Below, piece by piece: positions 36,170 to 45,217 of a stretch of DNA of 64,000 nucleotides (position 1 is the first letter of the stretch; each line of letters opens with the position of its first letter). The position numbers were made by a program, and so were the translations under genes. The notes beneath the pieces are model-generated. The model had not been told where the DNA came from. It saw nothing but the letters and a program-made list of their open reading frames with translations, and made no database searches. Origin of the DNA: Gammaproteobacteria bacterium (lineage in GTDB: Bacteria > Pseudomonadota > Gammaproteobacteria > JAUZRS01); NCBI GenBank assembly GCA_030949385.1, contig JAUZSP010000006.1:128121-192120 (forward strand). Reading direction: 5' to 3'.

Positions 36170-37396
36170 ATGCCTGATCAGAGCAAGTCCGAGCACGATG
36201 CAGAGTACGATCTGATTTTGGTGGGCGGCGGCATGGTGGGCGCAACCCTCGCCTGTGCGCTGCAACAGAGTGGGTTGAAAATCGCTCTGTTGGAGGTGTA
36301 TCCGTTTGCCTCAGCGCAGCAGCCGAGTTACGACGACCGTTCCACGGCGCTCTCTTTTGGCTCCCGGGGGCTGTATGAAAAGCTCGGTCTGTGGACGGAG
36401 CTGCGGGAGGGGGCGACGGCGATTGATAAGATCCACATTTCAGATCGTGGCCATTTTGGCGCGGCGCGGCTGGACTGTCAGGAAGAGGGGGTGGATGCGC
36501 TGGGGTATGTGATCGAGAACCGTATTTTGGGGCAGGTGCTGGCGGAACGTTTGGAATTGCAAGGAGGCATTGAGTTGATTATGCCCGCGCAGGTGGAGCG
36601 GGTGGAGAACGGCAGCGATGGGGTGACTGTGACGCTGCAACAGGCGGGGGAGTTGCGTTGTTTGCAGGCCAAGTTGGTGGTGGTGGCGGACGGCAGTGAG
36701 TCGGCGCTGCGTCAGCAGTTGGGTGTGCCGACGGAGCAGAAACGCTACGGCCAGACGGCGATTATCTGCAATATCAGCACGGATCGTCAGCATAATAACG
36801 TCGCTTATGAGCGTTTTACCGACAGTGGCCCCTTGGCGCTGTTGCCGCTTTCGGCGGGGCGTTGTGCTTTGGTGTTGAGCTGCCTTGATGAGCAGGTTGA
36901 GGCGCTGTTGGCGCTCAGTGATGCGGAGTTTATCGCTCATGTGCAGCGGCGTTTTGGCCATCGCTTGGGGTATTTTACTCGGGTGGGGCGGCGTTCGAGT
37001 TATCCGTTGCAGCTGCTGGAGACAGAATCGCAGCAGCAGGGGCGGGTGTTGTTGCTGGGCAACGCAGCGCGCACCCTGCATCCGGTGGCGGGGCAGGGTC
37101 TGAACTTGGCGCTGCGGGATATGGACGCGCTGTTGGAGTCTCTGTTGGCGGCGGCGCGCAGCGGTGCGGATCTGGGTGCGCCGGTTTTGCTGGCTGAGTT
37201 TGTTGAAGCGCGCCGTGCCGATCAGCGCCAAGTGGTGCGCATCACTGACGGTCTGGTGACGCTGTTTTCCAATGGGTTTGCTCCCGTGGTGGCGTTGCGT
37301 GGTGCGGGGTTGTTGGCGTTGGATCTGCTGCCTGCGCTGCGTCATCGTTTGGCGAAACAGATGATGGGTTTGGGGGGACGGTTGCCTCGTTGGTAG
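36170..37396 (+). CDS. ubiH: 2-octaprenyl-6-methoxyphenol hydroxylase UbiH
   Basis: Encodes 408 aa. FAD-binding GGGMVGATLACAL at the N-terminus, the DDRSTALSFGSRGLYEKLGLW stretch typical of UbiH, and LLGNAARTLHPVAGQGLNLALRD near the C-terminus. It is a flavin monooxygenase of ubiquinone synthesis. In E. coli ubiI follows directly. Here ubiI is about 5.6 kb away, on the far side of the CRISPR island. Confidence 0.94.
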   Translation: MPDQSKSEHDAEYDLILVGGGMVGATLACALQQSGLKIALLEVYPFASAQQPSYDDRSTALSFGSRGLYEKLGLWTELREGATAIDKIHISDRGHFGAARLDCQEEGVDALGYVIENRILGQVLAERLELQGGIELIMPAQVERVENGSDGVTVTLQQAGELRCLQAKLVVVADGSESALRQQLGVPTEQKRYGQTAIICNISTDRQHNNVAYERFTDSGPLALLPLSAGRCALVLSCLDEQVEALLALSDAEFIAHVQRRFGHRLGYFTRVGRRSSYPLQLLETESQQQGRVLLLGNAARTLHPVAGQGLNLALRDMDALLESLLAAARSGADLGAPVLLAEFVEARRADQRQVVRITDGLVTLFSNGFAPVVALRGAGLLALDLLPALRHRLAKQMMGLGGRLPRW

Positions 37397-37499: not shown

Positions 37500-37674
37500 C
37501 AAAGCCCCAAGCAATCGGGGCAATGTTTCAAACGTTCAACTATTCGTTATCAGACTCCGTTTCCCACTGAATTTCTCCGCTTTCACTTGCACTCAAATCA
37601 CGCATTGGGCTATCTCCTTTAGATAACGATACCAGATTTCTTAATCCCTTCTTCATTAGGGCAATGTTTCAAAC
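37500..37674. repeat. Possible relic of a second CRISPR-like repeat type
   Basis: Two segments end in GGGCAATGTTTCAAAC, at about 37518-37533 and 37659-37674. Each is preceded by a C-rich arm that can pair with the G run (GCCCC...GGGGC and TCCCT...AGGG). They are 141 bp apart, about two repeat-plus-spacer periods. No intact third copy is visible between them. The ...TTTCAAAC ending resembles CRISPR repeats, but the evidence is thin. Confidence 0.35.
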
Positions 37675-37885
37675 TCTTAAAAATACACCTTTGTCAGATA
37701 CAAACATCCTTTCTAGTCAACACCCTAAAACAGCGGCATCACATCAGGTGGGCGTACCAATCATTGACGCTTAATTTCAAAAAAAACTCATTTGTTGTGC
37801 TCCTCGTTGTTCGATGAGTGAAGTCTAGCGGTTTCTATGGGCGTTATGGATTTGGCAAGCTTGTCTTATCTTTTTTTATGAGGTG

Positions 37886-37921
37886 GTGCGAAATCTAGCC
37901 TCGTTAGAAGGGGTCTGAGAC
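37886..37921 (+). repeat. Solitary decayed CRISPR repeat upstream of the cas genes
   Basis: Matches the main array repeat at 30 of 36 positions (GTGCGAAATC...GGGGTCTGAGAC). The bases before it (TTTTTTTATGAGGT) resemble the end of the main leader (TTTTTTTAGGAGGT). The bases after it (TTTAAGTCT, then a family-A repeat) resemble the end of the main array (TTTAAATCT, then the same element). It therefore looks like a leader, one repeat and a trailer, with no spacers. Confidence 0.8.
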
Positions 37922-37937
37922 TTTAAGTCTCCATGCT

Positions 37938-38021
37938 ATGGCAGACCTTATGGATTCCCGCCTTCGCGGGAATGACGGGAGTGATGGGAGTGATGGGAGT
38001 GATGGGAGTGATGGGAGTGAC
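37938..38021. repeat. Family-A palindromic repeat with 6x9-bp tail
   Basis: Hairpin GGATTCCCGCC-TTC-GCGGGAATGAC followed by a tandem array of 9-bp units (GGGAATGAC, then GGGAGTGAT four times, then GGGAGTGAC; 37968-38021). The unit is clearly derived from the right arm of the hairpin. A 71-aa frame read through it is a repeat artefact. Confidence 0.85.
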
Positions 38022-38147: not shown

Positions 38148-38426
38148 ATGAAAAAACGGGCGGCCATTATCGCGTATGACATTTCTTGTGATCGTCGGCG
38201 TTATCGGGTGTTAAAAATTTTAAAAGAGTGGCGTTTGGATGGGCAAAAATCGGTGCATGAGTGTCTGCTGAGCGAGTCGCAGGCCGAAGAGCTGTTTTTG
38301 CAACTTGCGGAATTTATTCAGGCAGAGGATCGTTTGTTGTTGGCGTGGTTGCACGGTCATCGTGAGGGATCTTCCCGTGGTGTGGGACAGATGGCGGTCA
38401 AAAAAGGCATTATTTTGCTCAATTAG
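38148..38426 (+). CDS. cas2: CRISPR-associated endoribonuclease-fold protein Cas2
   Basis: Encodes 92 aa. The ferredoxin-like fold starts RAAIIAYDISCDRRRYRVLKIL with the conserved Asp, then LDGQKSVHECLLS and RLLLAWLHG. Cas2 dimers bridge Cas1 dimers in the spacer-integration complex. ATG 38148 has the strong ribosome binding site AGGGAGGGGG. It opens a four-gene operon with a second Cas2-type gene, cas1 and a reverse transcriptase. Confidence 0.9.
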   Translation: MKKRAAIIAYDISCDRRRYRVLKILKEWRLDGQKSVHECLLSESQAEELFLQLAEFIQAEDRLLLAWLHGHREGSSRGVGQMAVKKGIILLN

Positions 38427-38440
38427 AGGGAGCGTGGTTG

Positions 38441-38788
38441 ATGCAGAAAAAAGGGTGGTATCTGATTGCCTATGACATTAAGCAGGCGCGTCGCTTGAAA
38501 CGTGTTCACCGTTTTTTCAAAAAAAGAGCGTTGTGGGTGCAGCAGTCGGTGTTTTTTGCTCAGTGCAGTGAAGCGGAGTTGCACGACTGGCTGAATGAGG
38601 CGCTGACGTTGATGGAGTCAAAAGAGGATGATTTGCGGGCTTGGCCGATTTATCACCCAAGTAAGGTGTGGTTGCAGGGAGAGTCGCCTTTCAGAGAGGG
38701 CTTGACGGTGCCGGATCGGTCGCGTTCAGAGCGTGAGGGTAATCCGTTGACACGGCTGTTTCGACGTTTTTTGGGGGAGGTTCGGTGA
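38441..38788 (+). CDS. Second Cas2-type protein
   Basis: Encodes 115 aa. WYLIAYDIKQARRLKRVHRFFKKRALWVQQSVFFAQCSEAELHDWL is a Cas2 fold with the catalytic-position Asp kept. It is only weakly similar to the first Cas2 and carries a ~40-residue basic C-terminal extension (VPDRSRSEREGNPLTRLFRRFLGEVR). AGAGGGAG precedes ATG 38441. The stop overlaps the cas1 start as GTGA. It could form heterodimers with the first Cas2, or bind the reverse transcriptase or RNA; this is inference. Confidence 0.85.
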   Translation: MQKKGWYLIAYDIKQARRLKRVHRFFKKRALWVQQSVFFAQCSEAELHDWLNEALTLMESKEDDLRAWPIYHPSKVWLQGESPFREGLTVPDRSRSEREGNPLTRLFRRFLGEVR

Positions 38789-39768
38789 GCGATTTTTTGT
38801 TGGTGATTGATCGACGTGACACGGTGGTTACGCTGAACGGTGGTGCGTTGCGGGTGGTGCGTTCTGGAGAGACGGCTCAGCAGGTGCCGTTGGGTTTGCT
38901 GGGACAGGTGGTGGTTTACGGCGCGCCTCAGGTGGGGTGTGATGTGTGGCGAGCCTTGTCAAAACGGGGCATTCCGGTGGTGCTGCACTCTTTGCGCGGG
39001 GCGTTGGAGAGCGTTTATATGGGGAGTGTATTGGGGGCTTCCATTGCGGTTCGAGTGGCACAGCATCGTTTGGTGCAGTCGGGCAGCGTTGCGGTGGCGC
39101 AGGATCTTGTTTTGGCTAAGGTGCAGGGGTATCGCCTGTTGTTGGCGCAGTTGCCCGATGGTGAGGGGGTTCGTGAGTCGTTGCGGCAGCGGTTGGATTC
39201 TGTGCCCTCAGCGGAGGGGTGTTCGACCTTGATGGGCATTGAGGGAGCCTGTGGTGCGCTTTGGTGGGGCTGGTTGGCGACGCATTTGCCTGCGTGTTGG
39301 TTGTTTTCGGGGCGTAATCGCCGTCCACCTCAAGATCCGGTTAATGCGTTGCTGTCCTTGAGCTACACCTTGTTGGAGTCTGAGGTGTTGGCGGAGATTC
39401 AGCGTCAAGGGTTTGATCCGGCGTTGGGTTTTTTGCATGGCATCGTGCCGGGACGATCTTCGTTGGTGTTTGATTTGATGGAGCCTTTGCGTGCGGGGGT
39501 GGATGCGTTTGTATTGTCGCTGCTGGATGAGGTGTTGTTGCCGAGTCATTTTAGTGGTGTGGGTGAGGGGTGTCGGTTGGATAAAGAGGGTCGGGCGCTT
39601 TTTTATCGGGCGTGGGCAAAGGCGAGAACGGCGTGGCCTCTGTTGCCCTTTGGGATGGAGTGTGGCGATGAGGCGAGTTTGATGAGGTGTTGTGGTTTTG
39701 TGGCGAAGGGTGTTCGTCACAGTTTGGGGCGTTATTCACCGAGTACGGGGGAGAAAATCTGTGGCTGA
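38785..39768 (+). CDS. cas1: CRISPR integrase Cas1
   Basis: Encodes 327 aa from GTG 38785, with GGGGGAGG upstream. The metal-binding triad is intact: Glu153 (LMGIEGACG), His218 (GFLHG) and Asp230, with Glu233 nearby (SLVFDLMEPLR). The NRRPPQDPVNALLSLSYTLL helix is also typical. Cas1 inserts prespacers at the leader-repeat junction. It is not fused to the reverse transcriptase; the two genes overlap by 8 bp. Confidence 0.94.
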   Translation: MSDFLLVIDRRDTVVTLNGGALRVVRSGETAQQVPLGLLGQVVVYGAPQVGCDVWRALSKRGIPVVLHSLRGALESVYMGSVLGASIAVRVAQHRLVQSGSVAVAQDLVLAKVQGYRLLLAQLPDGEGVRESLRQRLDSVPSAEGCSTLMGIEGACGALWWGWLATHLPACWLFSGRNRRPPQDPVNALLSLSYTLLESEVLAEIQRQGFDPALGFLHGIVPGRSSLVFDLMEPLRAGVDAFVLSLLDEVLLPSHFSGVGEGCRLDKEGRALFYRAWAKARTAWPLLPFGMECGDEASLMRCCGFVAKGVRHSLGRYSPSTGEKICG

Positions 39769-40597
39769 GTTATTGGATCGGGTCTTGAGCCCTGAGGTGA
39801 TGAATCGTGCGTGGCGTGGCTTGAAGCAGGATCGAGCGCAGTGGATGCCAGGTGTGAGCCGAGCTTCCATTGAGAAGGATTGGGTGTTGCATTTGATGCG
39901 TTTGATGGAGGAGGTGAGGGCTGGTGAGTATCAACCGGCGGGGTTGCGTCGTTTTACGATTGCGAAGGCGGATGGCGGTAAGCGGGTGTTGTCGGCGTTG
40001 ACGTTGCGGGATAAGTTGGTGCAAAAGGCGTGTCAGATTGTGCTTGATCCGTTGGCGGAGCGGTTGTTTTCCAATGACAGTTACGCTTATCGGCGGGGTC
40101 GGAGTGTGGAGATGGCGGTTTCTAAGGCGAAGGAGCGGGTGCTGTGTGGTTTGGATTGGTTGGTGGATGCGGACATTCGTACCTTTTTTGATGCTATTCC
40201 GCATGGTGCGTTGCGTAAGGTGTTGCGTGAGTTGGTTAAGGATAAGGATCTGTTGCGGTTGTTGGACCGTTGGTTGGCGGTGGGGTGCTCTCATCAGAGT
40301 CTGTTTGGTCGGCGGCGTGGGATTCCTCAGGGTGCGATTTTATCGCCGCTTTTTTGTAATCTGTATCTGAATCAGATGGATCGCTTGTGGGATAAACAAA
40401 ACATTCAATTTGTTCGTTTTGCCGATGATTTTTTGCTGTTTGCTCCAGATCAAAAACGGGCTGAGCAGATGTTGCGTTACACGGAAAAGCAGTTGTCTAA
40501 GTTGGGTTTGGAGCTGCATGATAAAAAAACGCGGGTGTGTCATAGCGGTGATAAAGTGATTTTTTTAGGGAAGAAGTTGTCTAAACGGCGTTGGTGA
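39761..40597 (+). CDS. Stand-alone CRISPR-associated reverse transcriptase
   Basis: Encodes 278 aa from GTG 39761, which lies 7 bases after GGGGGAG and inside the end of cas1. RT motifs in order: TLRDKLVQKACQIVLDPLAE, SYAYRRGRS, Asp136/Asp138 in LVDADIRTFFDAI, RGIPQGAILSPLFCNLYL, and FADD at 220-223 in place of YADD. The thumb region is short and there is no maturase (domain X) or endonuclease, so it is not a group II intron. The context indicates a role in acquiring spacers from RNA. It resembles the retron/group II-like RTs found next to cas1. Confidence 0.92.
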   Translation: MAELLDRVLSPEVMNRAWRGLKQDRAQWMPGVSRASIEKDWVLHLMRLMEEVRAGEYQPAGLRRFTIAKADGGKRVLSALTLRDKLVQKACQIVLDPLAERLFSNDSYAYRRGRSVEMAVSKAKERVLCGLDWLVDADIRTFFDAIPHGALRKVLRELVKDKDLLRLLDRWLAVGCSHQSLFGRRRGIPQGAILSPLFCNLYLNQMDRLWDKQNIQFVRFADDFLLFAPDQKRAEQMLRYTEKQLSKLGLELHDKKTRVCHSGDKVIFLGKKLSKRRW

Positions 40598-40724
40598 GGT
40601 AGAGTATGGGCTTCGTTACTTCACCTTTAGATCCTATTTAAAAGTTAACTTTTTTGATGAATTTAAGTTGTATTTTTATGGCTTGTAAGCAGTTGAAAAA
40701 TAAGGAGATTTTTTTAGGAGGTCA
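40598..40724 (+). promoter_or_regulatory. CRISPR leader
   Basis: An AT-rich 127-bp region between the RT gene and the first repeat. It contains a perfect 14-bp palindrome, AAAAGTTAACTTTT (40640-40653), which may end RT transcription or bind an integration host factor. The 3' end TTTTTTTAGGAGGTCA abuts repeat 1. New spacers should enter here. The array promoter presumably lies here too, but I cannot fix its boxes. Confidence 0.75.
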
Positions 40725-41527
40725 GTACGAAACCTAGCCCCGTTAGAAGGGGATTAAGACGATTTATAATGATGGGCAATCCCAAACGAGGATGTACGAA
40801 ACCTAGCCCCGTTAGAAGGGGATTAAGACGTACTTATAACGCCTATACCCGTAGTTGTGAGTACGAAACCTAGCCCCGTTAGAAGGGGATTAAGACCAGC
40901 TGATACTTCACGGTGTAAGCCTAGCTACTATCGGTACGAAACCTAGCCCCGTTAGAAGGGGATTAAGACGGCTGTGAATTTGGGACAATCCCAAACCCAC
41001 AGCGTACGAAACCTAGCCCCGTTAGAAGGGGATTAAGACCGTTCCACGGCGTCGACATCCATGTGGGGGAGGTACGAAACCTAGCCCCGTTAGAAGGGGA
41101 TTAAGACACAGCGGGGTGTACCCCAATCACCAGATCTGTACGAAACCTAGCCCCGTTAGAAGGGGATTAAGACATACTGGTGGTTTCTTCTGTTGCAAAT
41201 GCCGCTAAAGTACGAAACCTAGCCCCGTTAGAAGGGGATTAAGACTTATACATGGCTCAGCCACCTGTCCGCTAGCTATGTGGTACGAAACCTAGCCCCG
41301 TTAGAAGGGGATTAAGACCTTGCATCGTTAAATGCATCAAACTGCTTTGTACGAAACCTAGCCCCGTTAGAAGGGGATTAAGACTTGCAACAGGAGCAGT
41401 TTCAATAGCATTTTGTACGAAACCTAGCCCCGTTAGAAGGGGATTAAGACTCTCTGTGAGCGATGAGCTCTGTGAGATGTCGCCGTCATGCGTACGAAAC
41501 CTAGCCCCGTTAGAAGGGGATTAAGAC
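40725..41527 (+). CRISPR. CRISPR array, 12 repeats and 11 spacers
   Basis: Twelve identical 36-bp repeats begin GTACGAAACC and end GGGGATTAAGAC, with internal stem CCCC-GTTAGAA-GGGG. Repeat starts: 40725, 40794, 40861, 40934, 41004, 41072, 41138, 41210, 41283, 41349, 41415, 41492. Spacers are 33, 31, 37, 34, 32, 30, 36, 37, 30, 30 and 41 nt. The last eight bases (ATTAAGAC) would form the crRNA 5' handle, so transcription should run on the plus strand from the RT side. The variable spacer length fits type III-like systems. No effector genes are present in the window. Confidence 0.98.
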
Positions 41528-41539
41528 TTTAAATCTCAA

Positions 41540-41740
41540 GTCTGTGGCAAGCCCTATGGATTCCCGCCTTCGCGGGAATGACGAGCTTTGTGGGAATGAC
41601 GAGCTTTGTGGGAATGACGAGCTTTGTGGGAATGACGAGCTTTGTGGGAATGATGAGCTTTGTGGGAATGATGAGCTTTGTGGGAATGATGAGCTTTGTG
41701 GGAATGACGAGCTTCGCGGGAATGATGAGCAAAAAATAAA
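41540..41740. repeat. Family-A palindromic repeat with 18-bp tandem expansion
   Basis: Hairpin GGATTCCCGCC-TTC-GCGGGAATGACG, then the 18-bp unit GGGAATGACGAGCTTTGT repeated from 41574; nine GGGAATG starts at 18-bp spacing, the last partial at 41718. Unit 8 has a GCTTCGCGGG variant and several units carry GATGAG for GACGAG. The tail GAGCAAAAAATA is shared with the single-copy element at 44.2 kb. Apparent ORFs on both strands here are repeat translations. Confidence 0.9.
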
Positions 41741-41742
41741 CC

Positions 41743-41776
41743 TCCCCTAACCCCTCTTTGTTAAAGAGGGGAAACC
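41743..41776. repeat. CCCCTCTTTG...AAAGAGGGG hairpin
   Basis: The sequence CCTCCCCTAACCCCTCTTT-GTT-AAAGAGGGGAAACC forms a strong hairpin. A related element, CCCTCCTTTG-AC-AAAGGAGGG with the adjoining TTGGGGAGG, lies at 60600-60628. These look like copies of a short dispersed repeat. Confidence 0.55.
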
Positions 41777-41885
41777 AAATCGTATTGCTTGATTCTTCTG
41801 GTGGTTGAATTTACGGTGCTTTTTGGTCTTTGGCTTCCTGCTTTGAAAGAGGGGGCGAGGGGCTTTGCTCTTGCTTGGTTTGATT

Positions 41886-41916
41886 GGCGCACTGCCCTTT
41901 GGTTAGTGCGCCCTAC
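41886..41916 (-). repeat. Family-B palindromic repeat right of the array
   Basis: GGCGCACTGCCCTTTGG-TTAGTGCGCCCTAC, the inverted orientation of the unit at 37451-37481. The two copies bracket the cas genes and array. No protein-coding gene lies between the array (41527) and cas6 (42070); the region is repeats and otherwise featureless sequence. Confidence 0.7.
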
Positions 41917-42069
41917 GCAGGGCGCTCTACGCAGTCTTGAAGGGCGTGTTTTGACATTGAGTTATAAAGCCTCTTAGCGAGGCTTTTTTTGTGCCTTCTG
42001 AGTGATTAATCTTCTAAATACTGAGTGATTGGCATAGACTGCACAGCGCCTTTGAACTTGGAGAACCCC

Positions 42070-43014
42070 ATGACCTCACCCGCCGTGCCGCTGGCTCAGT
42101 ATCGTTTTACCTTACGGGCATTGGAGCCTATTTGTTTGCCTGATTACAGCGGCTCCGCGTGGCGCGGGGTGTTTGGCCATGCCTTGAAAGATCTGGCCTG
42201 CGTGACCAAACAGAAAACCTGTTCGAGCTGTCAGCTCTATCGCGGCTGTGTTTACAGCTATTTGTTTGAAACCCCACCGCCGCTGGGCAGTGAAAAAATG
42301 GCCAACGGCTCTGCCGCACCTCACCCCTATATTTTGGTGCCAAGCGACGCAAAAGTGCTTCAGGTGGGGGAGACGTATGCGTTGGGTTTGACCCTGTTTG
42401 GCCGGGCTAATCGCCATTTGGACTATGTGATTTATGCCTTGAATAAGGCCGGTGAGCGGGGCATTGGCCGAGATCATGGGCGTTTTGAGCTGCACACGGT
42501 GGCGCAGAAGAGCGCCGATGGCAGCCATCAAATCATCTACAAAAAGGGCGAATCGGTGCGATCCCAACCCCTGTTTGAGCGTGATGTTCCGGCGTTGCCC
42601 GATGCAGTAACGATCACCTTGCATACGCCCTTACGTTTGCGCTCGAAGGGTAAAAATGTGCGCCCTGAGGGGTTCCTCTTTCGACAGTTTTTCTCCAGCT
42701 TATTAAGACGCTTTTCATTGCTGCGTTATTTTCACAGCGACGCGCCTTTGCGGGGTGATGTGGTTCAGTTGGCGGCGTTGGCGCACTCGGTAACGTTGTT
42801 GGAAGCGGATCTGCGCTGGCACGAATGGCGGCGTTATTCCAGTCGGCAGAAAAATGTGATTCCTATGGGCGGTATTGTGGGTTCTTTTTGCATTAAAACC
42901 TCTCAACTGGCTCCGCTGTGGCCTTACCTTTGGCTCGGACAGCAGATGCACACCGGCAAGGGCAGCAGTATGGGTTTGGGGCGTTACTCACTGATGTTAG
43001 AGGCTAAAAAATGA
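42070..43014 (+). CDS. cas6: CRISPR pre-crRNA endoribonuclease Cas6 (RAMP)
   Basis: Encodes 314 aa from ATG 42070 with GGAG upstream. N-terminal RAMP fold with AWRGVFGHALKDLACV and a four-cysteine cluster (TCSSCQLYRGC plus CV), then a C-terminal Cas6 domain ending in the glycine-rich loop GKGSSMGLGRY. The N-terminal cysteines are typical of a Cas6 subgroup with PYILVP and LTLFG motifs. It would cut the array transcript at the repeat hairpin. The stop overlaps the ubiI start as ATGA, so cas6 is translationally coupled to a housekeeping gene. Confidence 0.88.
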   Translation: MTSPAVPLAQYRFTLRALEPICLPDYSGSAWRGVFGHALKDLACVTKQKTCSSCQLYRGCVYSYLFETPPPLGSEKMANGSAAPHPYILVPSDAKVLQVGETYALGLTLFGRANRHLDYVIYALNKAGERGIGRDHGRFELHTVAQKSADGSHQIIYKKGESVRSQPLFERDVPALPDAVTITLHTPLRLRSKGKNVRPEGFLFRQFFSSLLRRFSLLRYFHSDAPLRGDVVQLAALAHSVTLLEADLRWHEWRRYSSRQKNVIPMGGIVGSFCIKTSQLAPLWPYLWLGQQMHTGKGSSMGLGRYSLMLEAKK

Positions 43015-44210
43015 AACAAACACGGTTTGATGTGATTGTGGTGGGGGCGGGCATGGTGGGTGCGGCGTTGGCCTGTGCTTTGGGTTTGGGTGGCAAACGG
43101 GTGGCGCTGCTGGAGCCTCATTTGCCCGTCTCGTTTGATCTTGATGCCGAGCCGGATCTGCGCGTCTCGGCCATTAACCGTGCTTCGCAAGCGCTGTTTG
43201 AGCGGCTCGGGGTATGGCAGACGCTGGCGGCGCAGCGCATCAGCCCCTTTGAAAACATGACGGTTTGGGATGCCACCGGCTCCGGTGAGATTCATTTTGA
43301 CAGCGCTGAGATGGGGGAGCCGTATTTGGGGCACATCATCGAGAATCGCTTGGTGCAGTGGGCGTTGTTGCAGCGGTTGGCACAACTGGCGTCGGTGACG
43401 GTGATCGAGGCGGCTTTGAGTGAACTGGCCTTTGAGCCGGATCAGGTGACGGTGAGCTTGGCGGACGGCACCGAGTTGAGCGCAGAGGTGCTGGTGGGTG
43501 CGGATGGGGCGCATTCACGGGTGCGTGCGTTGGCGGGCATTGAGGTGCAGAGCCGGGCGTATGATCAAAAGGGCATCGTCTGTCATGTGGCGACGGAAAA
43601 GCCCCATCAGCGCACGGCGTGGCAGCGTTTTTTGCCCAGCGGCCCATTGGCCTTTTTGCCCCTTGCCGATGGGCGCTGTTCCCTTGTCTGGTCTTGTGAC
43701 GATGCGGTGGCGGAGCAGATGATGGCGCTCTCTGATGAGGATTTTCGGCTTGAATTGGCGCAGGCGTTTGATCGGCGTTTGGGAGCGGTGACGGCGGTCA
43801 GTGAGCGGGCGGCGTTTCCGCTGCTGCGTCGTCATGCCGAGCAGTACGTTAAACCGCGTTTGGCCTTGGTGGGCGATGCGGCGCACACCATCCATCCGCT
43901 GGCGGGGCAGGGGGTGAACATCGGTCTGTTGGATGCGTCGGCCTTGACGGAGAGTCTACTGGAGTCGAAAGGCGACCTTGGGCAACTGCGGGTGTTGCGG
44001 CGTTACGAGCGTTGGCGGCGCGGTAATAACAGTCTGATGATGCATTCGATGGACGGTTTTTATGGGTTGTTTGGTAACGATCATCTGCCGCTGGTGCAGT
44101 TGCGTAATTTTGCGCTTTCGTTTGCGGATCGTGTCTCGCCGTTGAAGTCGCAGTTGATGCGTCATGCGATGGGGTTGGAGGGCGATTTGCCGGAGTTGTC
44201 GCGCAGTTGA
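43011..44210 (+). CDS. ubiI: Ubiquinone-biosynthesis flavin hydroxylase UbiI (VisC)
   Basis: Encodes 399 aa. FAD motif GAGMVGAALACAL, DLRVSAINRASQALFERLGVW and GDAAHTIHPLAGQGVNIGLLD. It is closer to UbiI/UbiF/VisC than to UbiH (no DDRSTALS stretch). It hydroxylates a polyprenylphenol at C5. It should be co-transcribed with ubiH but is now directly behind cas6. Confidence 0.92.
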   Translation: MKQTRFDVIVVGAGMVGAALACALGLGGKRVALLEPHLPVSFDLDAEPDLRVSAINRASQALFERLGVWQTLAAQRISPFENMTVWDATGSGEIHFDSAEMGEPYLGHIIENRLVQWALLQRLAQLASVTVIEAALSELAFEPDQVTVSLADGTELSAEVLVGADGAHSRVRALAGIEVQSRAYDQKGIVCHVATEKPHQRTAWQRFLPSGPLAFLPLADGRCSLVWSCDDAVAEQMMALSDEDFRLELAQAFDRRLGAVTAVSERAAFPLLRRHAEQYVKPRLALVGDAAHTIHPLAGQGVNIGLLDASALTESLLESKGDLGQLRVLRRYERWRRGNNSLMMHSMDGFYGLFGNDHLPLVQLRNFALSFADRVSPLKSQLMRHAMGLEGDLPELSRS

Positions 44211-44427: not shown

Positions 44428-44679
44428 ATGAGGCAAATACTCTCCAGTTGCTCCGCAAGTATTTCAGAATTAAAGAAAAATCCCACGGCACTGCTGAATG
44501 AAGCTGAAGGTGCGCCTATTGCGATACTCAATCACAATGTTCCAGCAGCCTATCTCATACCAGCAGAAACCTATGAGTGGTTAATGGATAAGTTGGAAGA
44601 CGTTGAGCTGGCGCAAATTGTGAGGGATCGAGCCGGTGAAAAATCACAGGCAATAGAAATTGATCTTGATGATTTATAA
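44428..44679 (+). CDS. Phd/YefM-family antitoxin
   Basis: Encodes 83 aa. The N-terminal Phd/YefM fold (ASISELKKNPTALLNEAEGAPIAILNHNVPAAYLIPAETYEWL) binds DNA and the acidic C-terminal tail (AIEIDLDDL) binds the toxin. GAGG lies about 9 bases before the ATG. It overlaps the toxin gene by 11 bp. Confidence 0.92.
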   Translation: MRQILSSCSASISELKKNPTALLNEAEGAPIAILNHNVPAAYLIPAETYEWLMDKLEDVELAQIVRDRAGEKSQAIEIDLDDL

Positions 44680-44953
44680 CATCAAGTTTTTGCCGAGTGC
44701 TTTGAAAGAGTGGAAAAAGCTGGCTCCTCCGATACGTAAGCAATTCAAAAAAAAGCTTGAAGAGAGGGTAAAAAATCCACACAACCTAGCAAGCCAACTG
44801 CATGGCTTTACAAACGTGTATAAAATCAAATTACGCTCAGTGGGGTATCGTTTGGTGTATGAAGTAAACGACAGTGAAGTCATCGTTTATGTCATTGCTG
44901 TGGGTAAAAGAGACCGAGGTTTGGTGTACAGCAAAGCAGAAAAACGAAAGTAG
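44669..44953 (+). CDS. RelE/StbE-family mRNA interferase toxin
   Basis: Encodes 94 aa. FLPSALKEWKKLAPPIRKQFKKKLEERVKNP, then VYKIKLRSVGYRLVYEV and VIAVGKRDRGLVY, matches RelE toxins that cut mRNA on the ribosome. The basic and aromatic residues expected of the active site are present. It starts inside the antitoxin stop region, so antitoxin is made first. Confidence 0.92.
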   Translation: MIYNIKFLPSALKEWKKLAPPIRKQFKKKLEERVKNPHNLASQLHGFTNVYKIKLRSVGYRLVYEVNDSEVIVYVIAVGKRDRGLVYSKAEKRK

Positions 44954-45031: not shown

Positions 45032-45050
45032 ACGCGCCTCAACGCATGAT

Positions 45051-45217
45051 CTACTGCGGGAGATTCCCACCAAGGGAAGCCGAAGGCGCAACCCGTCCGG
45101 AAACGCTCAGGCAAACGGACCGCAGTAGAGAGTTGGCTCTGGAGAGTGGCTTTAGCGCCCGCCGAAGGGGAATGGTTCCGTTGGAACCGGTATCTCTCAG
45201 GTAACAGGACAGAGGGG
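45051..45217 (+). ncRNA. Tandem glycine riboswitch
   Basis: Aptamer I is closed by a perfect 9-bp stem CTACTGCGG (45051-45059) / CCGCAGTAG (45120-45128) and contains GGGAGA...GCCGAAGG...CGCTCAGGCAAACGGAC. Aptamer II (about 45131-45217) contains TCTGGAGAG...GCCGAAGGGG...TCTCAGGTAACAGGACAGAGG. These are the conserved glycine-aptamer cores. It sits directly upstream of gcvT. Glycine binding would switch on the cleavage genes. Confidence 0.96.

What the first reader, a model, noticed from the sequence alone, without database searches (positions are those of the whole stretch)
38148..43014. RT-cas1-cas2-cas2 adaptation module with array and cas6 but no effector, inserted between ubiH and ubiI
Seen: two Cas2-type ORFs, Cas1 with an intact E/H/D triad, a separate RT (FADD), leader, array and Cas6, with no Cas10, Cas7, Cas5, Cas3, Cas9 or other effector in 64 kb. 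Known: RTs beside cas1 acquire spacers from RNA and usually accompany type III effectors; ygfB-pepP-ubiH-ubiI is normally continuous. Inference: the module either supplies memory and crRNA to an effector elsewhere in the genome, or is a stand-alone RNA-recording system. Splitting a core ubiquinone operon marks it as an island.
Basis: partly seen in the sequence, partly recalled or inferred. Interest (0 to 1): 0.85.

Follow-up and report, generated by a model that had tools for sequence, protein, structure and literature searches.

The report
Split RNA-sampling CRISPR memory module
A bacterial immune-memory gene cluster that may record RNA sits between two ubiquinone-synthesis genes without a weapon of its own; its likely weapon lies elsewhere in the same genome, in a locus whose own recording enzyme is broken, which makes this a tidy example of a known kind of split CRISPR system.

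Summary
Window 38148-43014 holds cas2-cas2-cas1-RT, a 12-repeat array and cas6 between ubiH and ubiI, with no type III effector in the window. The whole genome answers the open question. A complete type III-B locus (Cmr1-6, Cas10 with GGDD, two CARF proteins, a 68%-identical Cas6, two arrays) lies on another contig. Its cas1 is destroyed: about 139 residues, catalytic glutamate included, are gone and the frame is broken. The window's cas1 is thus the only intact type III cas1, and its RT the only RT found. Repeats of both loci fold alike and end in the same 8-nt tag AUUAAGAC. Best explanation: the ubiH-ubiI module acquires spacers, possibly from RNA, makes crRNAs, and arms the distant Cmr complex in trans. 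A stand-alone recorder is disfavoured. The sister species keeps a 24-nt cas6 scar in front of ubiI, so the module was there in the genus ancestor and was lost in the sister; it is not a recent island. RT-cas loci without effectors are already described (about half of those in Silas 2017). New member of a known kind, useful as a natural complementation case.

The parts
38148..38426 (+). cas2a
   Evidence: TIGR01573 27.2 bits (cut-off 24.5), PF09827 48.5 bits
38441..38788 (+). cas2b
   Evidence: TIGR01573 31.6 bits, PF09827 52.1 bits
38785..39768 (+). cas1, E153/H218/D230 intact; inside the RT-associated Cas1 clade
   Evidence: PF01867 212.6 bits; alignment A1; tree
39761..40597 (+). reverse transcriptase, group II-intron-like, FADD, no maturase region; only RVT_1 hit in the genome
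   Evidence: PF00078 132.7 bits, PADLOC RT 305 bits; alignment A2
40598..40724 (+). leader
   Evidence: between RT stop and first repeat; only loosely like the C3 leaders
40725..41527 (+). CRISPR array, 12 identical repeats GTACGAAACCTAGCCCCGTTAGAAGGGGATTAAGAC, 11 spacers
   Evidence: hairpin plus 8-nt AUUAAGAC tail
41528..41735 (.). array trailer with 18-bp tandem repeats
   Evidence: family D2
42070..43014 (+). cas6; stop overlaps ubiI start (ATGA); 68% identical to the Cas6 of the distant Cmr locus
   Evidence: PF10040 58.7 bits, PADLOC Cas6 336 bits
37886..37921 (+). degenerate orphan copy of the array repeat, followed by the same trailer (126 nt, 79%): probable relic of a second array
   Evidence: family D4
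37639..37674 (-). single repeat of the C3 (Cmr locus) type, 97% identical over 36 nt
37672..37874 (-). sequence like the stretch in front of cas6 in the C3 Cmr locus (82% over 119 nt, 76% over 86 nt)
36170..37396 (+). ubiH (left neighbour)
   Evidence: ORF; second UbiI-family hit
43011..44210 (+). ubiI (right neighbour), 97% identical in the sister species

Best explanation
This is the adaptation and crRNA-processing half of a type III-B CRISPR system, working in trans with the effector half on another contig. Cas1-Cas2-RT captures fragments (by homology from RNA as well as DNA) and inserts them at the leader end of the 12-repeat array; Cas6 cuts the transcript at the base of each repeat hairpin, leaving the 8-nt tag AUUAAGAC; the crRNAs load into the Cmr complex encoded at C3, whose Cas10 makes cyclic oligoadenylate that activates the CARF proteins beside it. 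Shown here: intact genes, identical predicted tags, one complete Cmr locus with a destroyed cas1, no other intact type III cas1 and no other RT. Inferred: RNA capture, loading across loci, expression, activity.
For: One Cas10 in the genome, with Cmr1-6, CARF-HEPN Csx1, a CARF ring-nuclease-type protein, Cas6 and two arrays at C3:517-535 kb. The C3 cas1 lacks residues about 91-229 of 337 and is frame-broken; the only other full-length cas1 is type I-E. The RT is the only RVT_1 hit in the genome. Both repeats fold into a short hairpin followed by AUUAAGAC, and all 29 genome-wide matches to the shared repeat 3' end fall in the window array (12) and the C3 arrays (17). The two Cas6 are 68% identical. 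The same cas2-cas2-cas1-RT module sits next to type III effectors in relatives (L046, L047, L050, L052, L056, L058, L059), and all genomes searched that carry this module, a near relative of it or its Cas1 clade (17 handles, at least one genome twice) encode type III RAMP proteins. Precedent for RT modules acting in trans (PMC5513706) and for Cmr using crRNAs of another locus (PMC5576922).
Against: No expression or protein data. The repeats of the two loci differ in their 5' half, so each Cas6 may be specific. No protospacer was found for any spacer searched, so use against real targets is unproven. The sister species keeps the Cmr genes with no type III cas1, cas2 or RT found in its fragmented assembly, so the Cmr half can persist without this module.
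Confidence: 0.68

Rival explanations
1. A decaying remnant: a once complete RT-type III-B locus at ubiH-ubiI lost its cmr genes, and what remains no longer works or is only a store of old spacers.
For: Relics around it: a degenerate orphan repeat with trailer, a lone C3-type repeat and a stray piece like the cas6 upstream region; loss of the module in the sister; cas6 ends directly on ubiI with no cmr gene after it.
Against: All five genes are open and keep their catalytic motifs; 12 repeats are identical and 11 spacers all different.
Confidence: 0.2
2. The module also feeds new spacers into the C3 arrays, replacing the broken C3 cas1 (shared adaptation rather than two separate arrays). This is an extension of the best explanation, not exclusive of it.
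For: C3 arrays have no intact cas1 of their own; both loci share the hairpin and the 3' end of the repeat; relatives with this module use repeats that look more like C3's (L046, L047).
Against: Leaders align only loosely and the 5' halves of the repeats differ; Cas1 specificity usually depends on leader and repeat ends (general knowledge).
Confidence: 0.25
3. A stand-alone RNA-recording system with no interference role.
For: No effector in cis.
Against: A complete Cmr effector with a matching crRNA tag is in the genome.
Confidence: 0.05
4. The split is an assembly artefact (misjoined contigs).
For: Draft genome in 10 contigs.
Against: The module is inside a 449-kb contig with intact ubi genes on both sides, the Cmr locus inside a 585-kb contig; the sister species has the matching scar at ubiI and the Cmr genes on other contigs.
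Confidence: 0.03

Closest known systems
RT-associated type III adaptation modules without effector genes (Silas et al. 2017, PMC5513706; Toro et al. 2017, PMC5541045)
   Same: RT next to cas1, array present, effector absent in cis; [quoted passage not shown] 41 of 110 records in Toro have no or partial effector
   Different: Here the partner effector is identified in the same genome and its own cas1 is broken
cas2-cas2-cas1-RT modules next to effectors in other proteobacteria (L046, L047, L050, L056, L058, L059)
   Same: Gene order, separate (unfused) RT, two Cas2, Cas1 of one clade
   Different: Those have Cmr or other type III RAMP genes within about 10 kb
Marinomonas mediterranea III-B RT-Cas1 system
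   Same: RT plus Cas1 plus Cas2 with a III-B effector; RNA spacer acquisition shown there; its Cmr can use crRNAs of another locus (PMC5576922)
   Different: RT is fused to Cas1 there and the locus is contiguous
Group II intron RTs / maturases
   Same: RT domain (TIGR04416 244 bits, below its 300-bit cut-off)
   Different: No maturase region; beside cas1

Membership tests
RT-associated CRISPR adaptation module | RT of group II-like CRISPR type beside cas1 | tested here: met
RT-associated CRISPR adaptation module | Cas1 catalytic Glu/His/Asp present | tested here: met
   E153, H218, D230 invariant
RT-associated CRISPR adaptation module | Cas1 falls with other RT-associated Cas1 | tested here: met
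   clade of 16 rows, 15 with RT, support 99
RT-associated CRISPR adaptation module | acquires spacers from RNA | not testable with these tools
   needs an acquisition assay; no protospacers found
Named RT-CRISPR clade of Toro/Silas (1-13) | position in the published RT phylogeny | not tested
   reference sequences of the published clades were not at hand
Type III-B CRISPR-Cas locus (complete, contiguous) | cas10/cmr genes in the same locus | tested here: not met
   no RAMP or Cas10 hit on contig C6
[quoted passage not shown]
   C3:517-535 kb; shared AUUAAGAC tail
[quoted passage not shown]
   needs pull-down and small-RNA sequencing
Stand-alone RNA recorder | no type III effector in the genome | tested here: not met
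Recent genomic island | site empty and unscarred in the sister species | tested here: not met
   24-nt cas6 3' remnant directly before ubiI in G001

The most novel reading that the evidence does not exclude
The module has taken over adaptation for the distant Cmr locus whose own cas1 is broken, and it preferentially stores fragments of structured RNA: spacers of arrays beside this separate-RT family fold somewhat better than spacers of arrays beside RT-less Cas1 relatives (genome means of z -0.43 against -0.18, p = 0.015 for 10 against 40 genomes; not seen for RT-Cas1 fusions). Spacer 4 of this array is a near-perfect 34-nt hairpin.
Probability: 0.15. Interest if true: 0.6.

Novelty: new member of a known kind. 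Interest (0 to 1): 0.36.

Why it matters
It gives a clean natural case for testing the published idea that RT adaptation modules serve type III effectors in trans: one genome, one Cmr complex, one broken and one intact type III cas1, two distinguishable repeats with the same tag. It also shows gain and loss of such a module at one site within a genus.

Tried and rejected
Protospacers: the array against phage and plasmid records gave only chance-level hits; eight spacer cores scanned in IMG/VR gave one 20-nt hit whose full spacer matches only 21 of 32 positions, rejected. Core of spacer 4 elsewhere in own genome: none. Rfam over the region: only glycine riboswitch aptamers. Spacer-hairpin signal: looked for only after seeing the spacers, modest, absent in RT-Cas1 fusions; kept as a lead. 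Structure prediction was not run because the families are clear from sequence. Stand-alone recorder and assembly artefact were considered and set low for the reasons given under the rivals.

Full report
What is there. Window 38148-43014 carries cas2a, cas2b, cas1, a separate reverse transcriptase, a 12-repeat CRISPR array and cas6 on the + strand, between ubiH (36170-37396) and ubiI (43011-44210). Profiles identify each gene. Cas1 keeps E153, H218 and D230; the RT keeps FADD. The RT starts at or near GTG 39761, overlapping the cas1 stop; cas6 ends in ATGA shared with the ubiI start. The exact 36-nt repeat occurs nowhere else in the genome.

The missing effector. A search of the window's own genome (2.87 Mb, 10 contigs, 98% complete) for RAMP proteins and Cas10 finds exactly one type III effector locus, on contig C3. 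Locus L025 shows: CARF-HEPN Csx1, array 1, Cas6, a CARF ring-nuclease-type protein, Cmr1, Cas10 (GGDD at residue 711), Cmr3, Cmr4, Cmr5, Cmr6, then cas2, a wrecked cas1, cas2 and array 2. The C3 cas1 lines up with a relative over residues 10-90 and 229-321 of 337, in two frames: about 139 residues, including the catalytic glutamate, are gone. Other cas1 in the genome: the window's, and a type I-E one. The only RVT_1 hit is the window's RT.

Compatibility of the halves. Both repeats fold into a short hairpin followed by AUUAAGAC, the expected 8-nt crRNA tag. The shared 3' end RARGGGATTAAGAC occurs 29 times in the genome: 12 in the window array, 17 in the two C3 arrays, never elsewhere, with zero hits for the reversed control. 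The two Cas6 proteins are 68% identical. This supports, but does not prove, a shared crRNA pool.

Relatives. In other proteobacteria the same cas2-cas2-cas1-RT set lies next to Cmr or other type III genes (L046, L047, L050, L052, L056, L058, L059). Leucothrix pacifica (L053) has the module with no effector recognised within 5 kb upstream and 10 kb downstream although its genome has RAMPs, so the split is not unique. All genomes searched that carry this module, a near relative of it or its Cas1 clade (17 handles, at least one genome counted twice) encode RAMPs. A Cas1 tree puts the window inside one RT-associated clade (support 99; 15 of 16 rows have RT) and the C3 relic among RT-less III-B Cas1 (support 86-88), so the genome seems to have held two different adaptation lineages. 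I did not place the RT in the published RT-CRISPR clades, for want of reference sequences.

History of the site. In nine more distant genomes of the class ubiH and ubiI are 9-164 bp apart. In the one other species of the genus held here, ubiI is 97% identical, and the sequence just before its ATG, GCGTTACTCACTGATGTTAGAGGC, is identical to the last codons of the window's cas6, not to the C3 cas6, which ends GCGTTATTCTTTAAGC. The rest of the gap there is a short cassette bounded by inverted repeats. So the module, or at least cas6, was at ubiH-ubiI in the genus ancestor and was lost in the sister. That sister keeps Cmr genes about 95-97% identical in DNA, with no type III cas1, cas2 or RT found, though its assembly is in 320 pieces. 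In the window, the ubiH side still shows a degenerate repeat with a copy of the array trailer, a lone C3-type repeat on the minus strand, and a piece resembling the sequence before the C3 cas6: traces of earlier arrays and perhaps of exchange with the Cmr locus.

Spacers. No spacer has a credible protospacer in phages or plasmids, nor in IMG/VR among the eight searched there. Several spacers form hairpins, spacer 4 almost perfectly. Across fetched loci, spacers of arrays beside this separate-RT family fold somewhat better than those beside RT-less Cas1 (genome level p = 0.015); RT-Cas1 fusions do not. This was looked for after the fact and is a lead, not a result.

Comparison with the literature. 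Silas et al. (PMC5513706) report that about half of RT-cas loci lack effector genes but often have an array, and propose function in trans with type III systems; Toro et al. (PMC5541045) list 41 of 110 records with a partial or unknown effector. Cmr use of crRNAs from another locus is shown in M. mediterranea (PMC5576922). The finding is therefore a new member of a known kind; the added value is that both halves, the broken cas1 and the scar in the sister are all visible in one small clade.

Noticed in passing
window 37886-38011: Degenerate orphan repeat (GTGCGAAATCTAGCCTCGTTAGAAGGGGTCTGAGAC) followed by a copy of the array trailer, 79% identical over 126 nt to 41492-41617.
   Followed up: partly
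window 37639-37674 (-) and 37672-37874 (-): A single repeat of the distant Cmr locus and a stretch like the one in front of its cas6 lie inverted between ubiH and cas2.
   Followed up: partly
window 40970-41003 (spacer 4): Spacer GGCTGTGAATTTGGGACAATCCCAAACCCACAGC is a near-perfect hairpin (-17.3 kcal/mol, z -4.6); its core is not found elsewhere in the genome or in IMG/VR.
   Followed up: partly
L154 (sister species) about 155-790: The ubiH-ubiI gap holds a short ORF that by eye resembles DUF559/Vsr-like endonucleases, bounded by inverted repeats, beside the cas6 scar.
   Followed up: no
L041 6704-19117 (genome C6 about 198.7-211.1 kb): Complete type I-E system with an array of about 53 spacers, beginning about 6.7 kb right of the window.
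   Followed up: partly
window 41550-41730: 18-bp tandem repeats GAGCTTTGTGGGAATGAC that seem to have grown out of a dispersed ATTCCCGCCTTCGCGGGAATGACG element in the array trailer.
   Followed up: no
window 45047-45214: Tandem glycine riboswitch aptamers in front of gcvT.
   Followed up: no
window 44428-44953: Phd/YafN-type antitoxin and RelE-type toxin pair between ubiI and gcvT.
   Followed up: no
L025 3402-4220 and 18952-19909: The two C3 arrays have near-identical leaders (98%) and trailers (99%); array 1 spacers are unusually variable in length (17-38 nt).
   Followed up: no
L025 4772-4948 and 16736-17569: Within the Cmr locus: a small hydrophobic peptide ORF before cas6 and a MoaA-like radical SAM gene after cmr6.
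   Followed up: no
L051: Thiospirillum jenense has cas2-cas2-cas1 of the RT clade but no RT found within the fetched flanks: possible RT loss.
   Followed up: no
L101: Desulfonema magnum has the RT module within about 20 kb of a 1787-residue open frame with several RAMP domains (Cas7-11-like by size).
   Followed up: no
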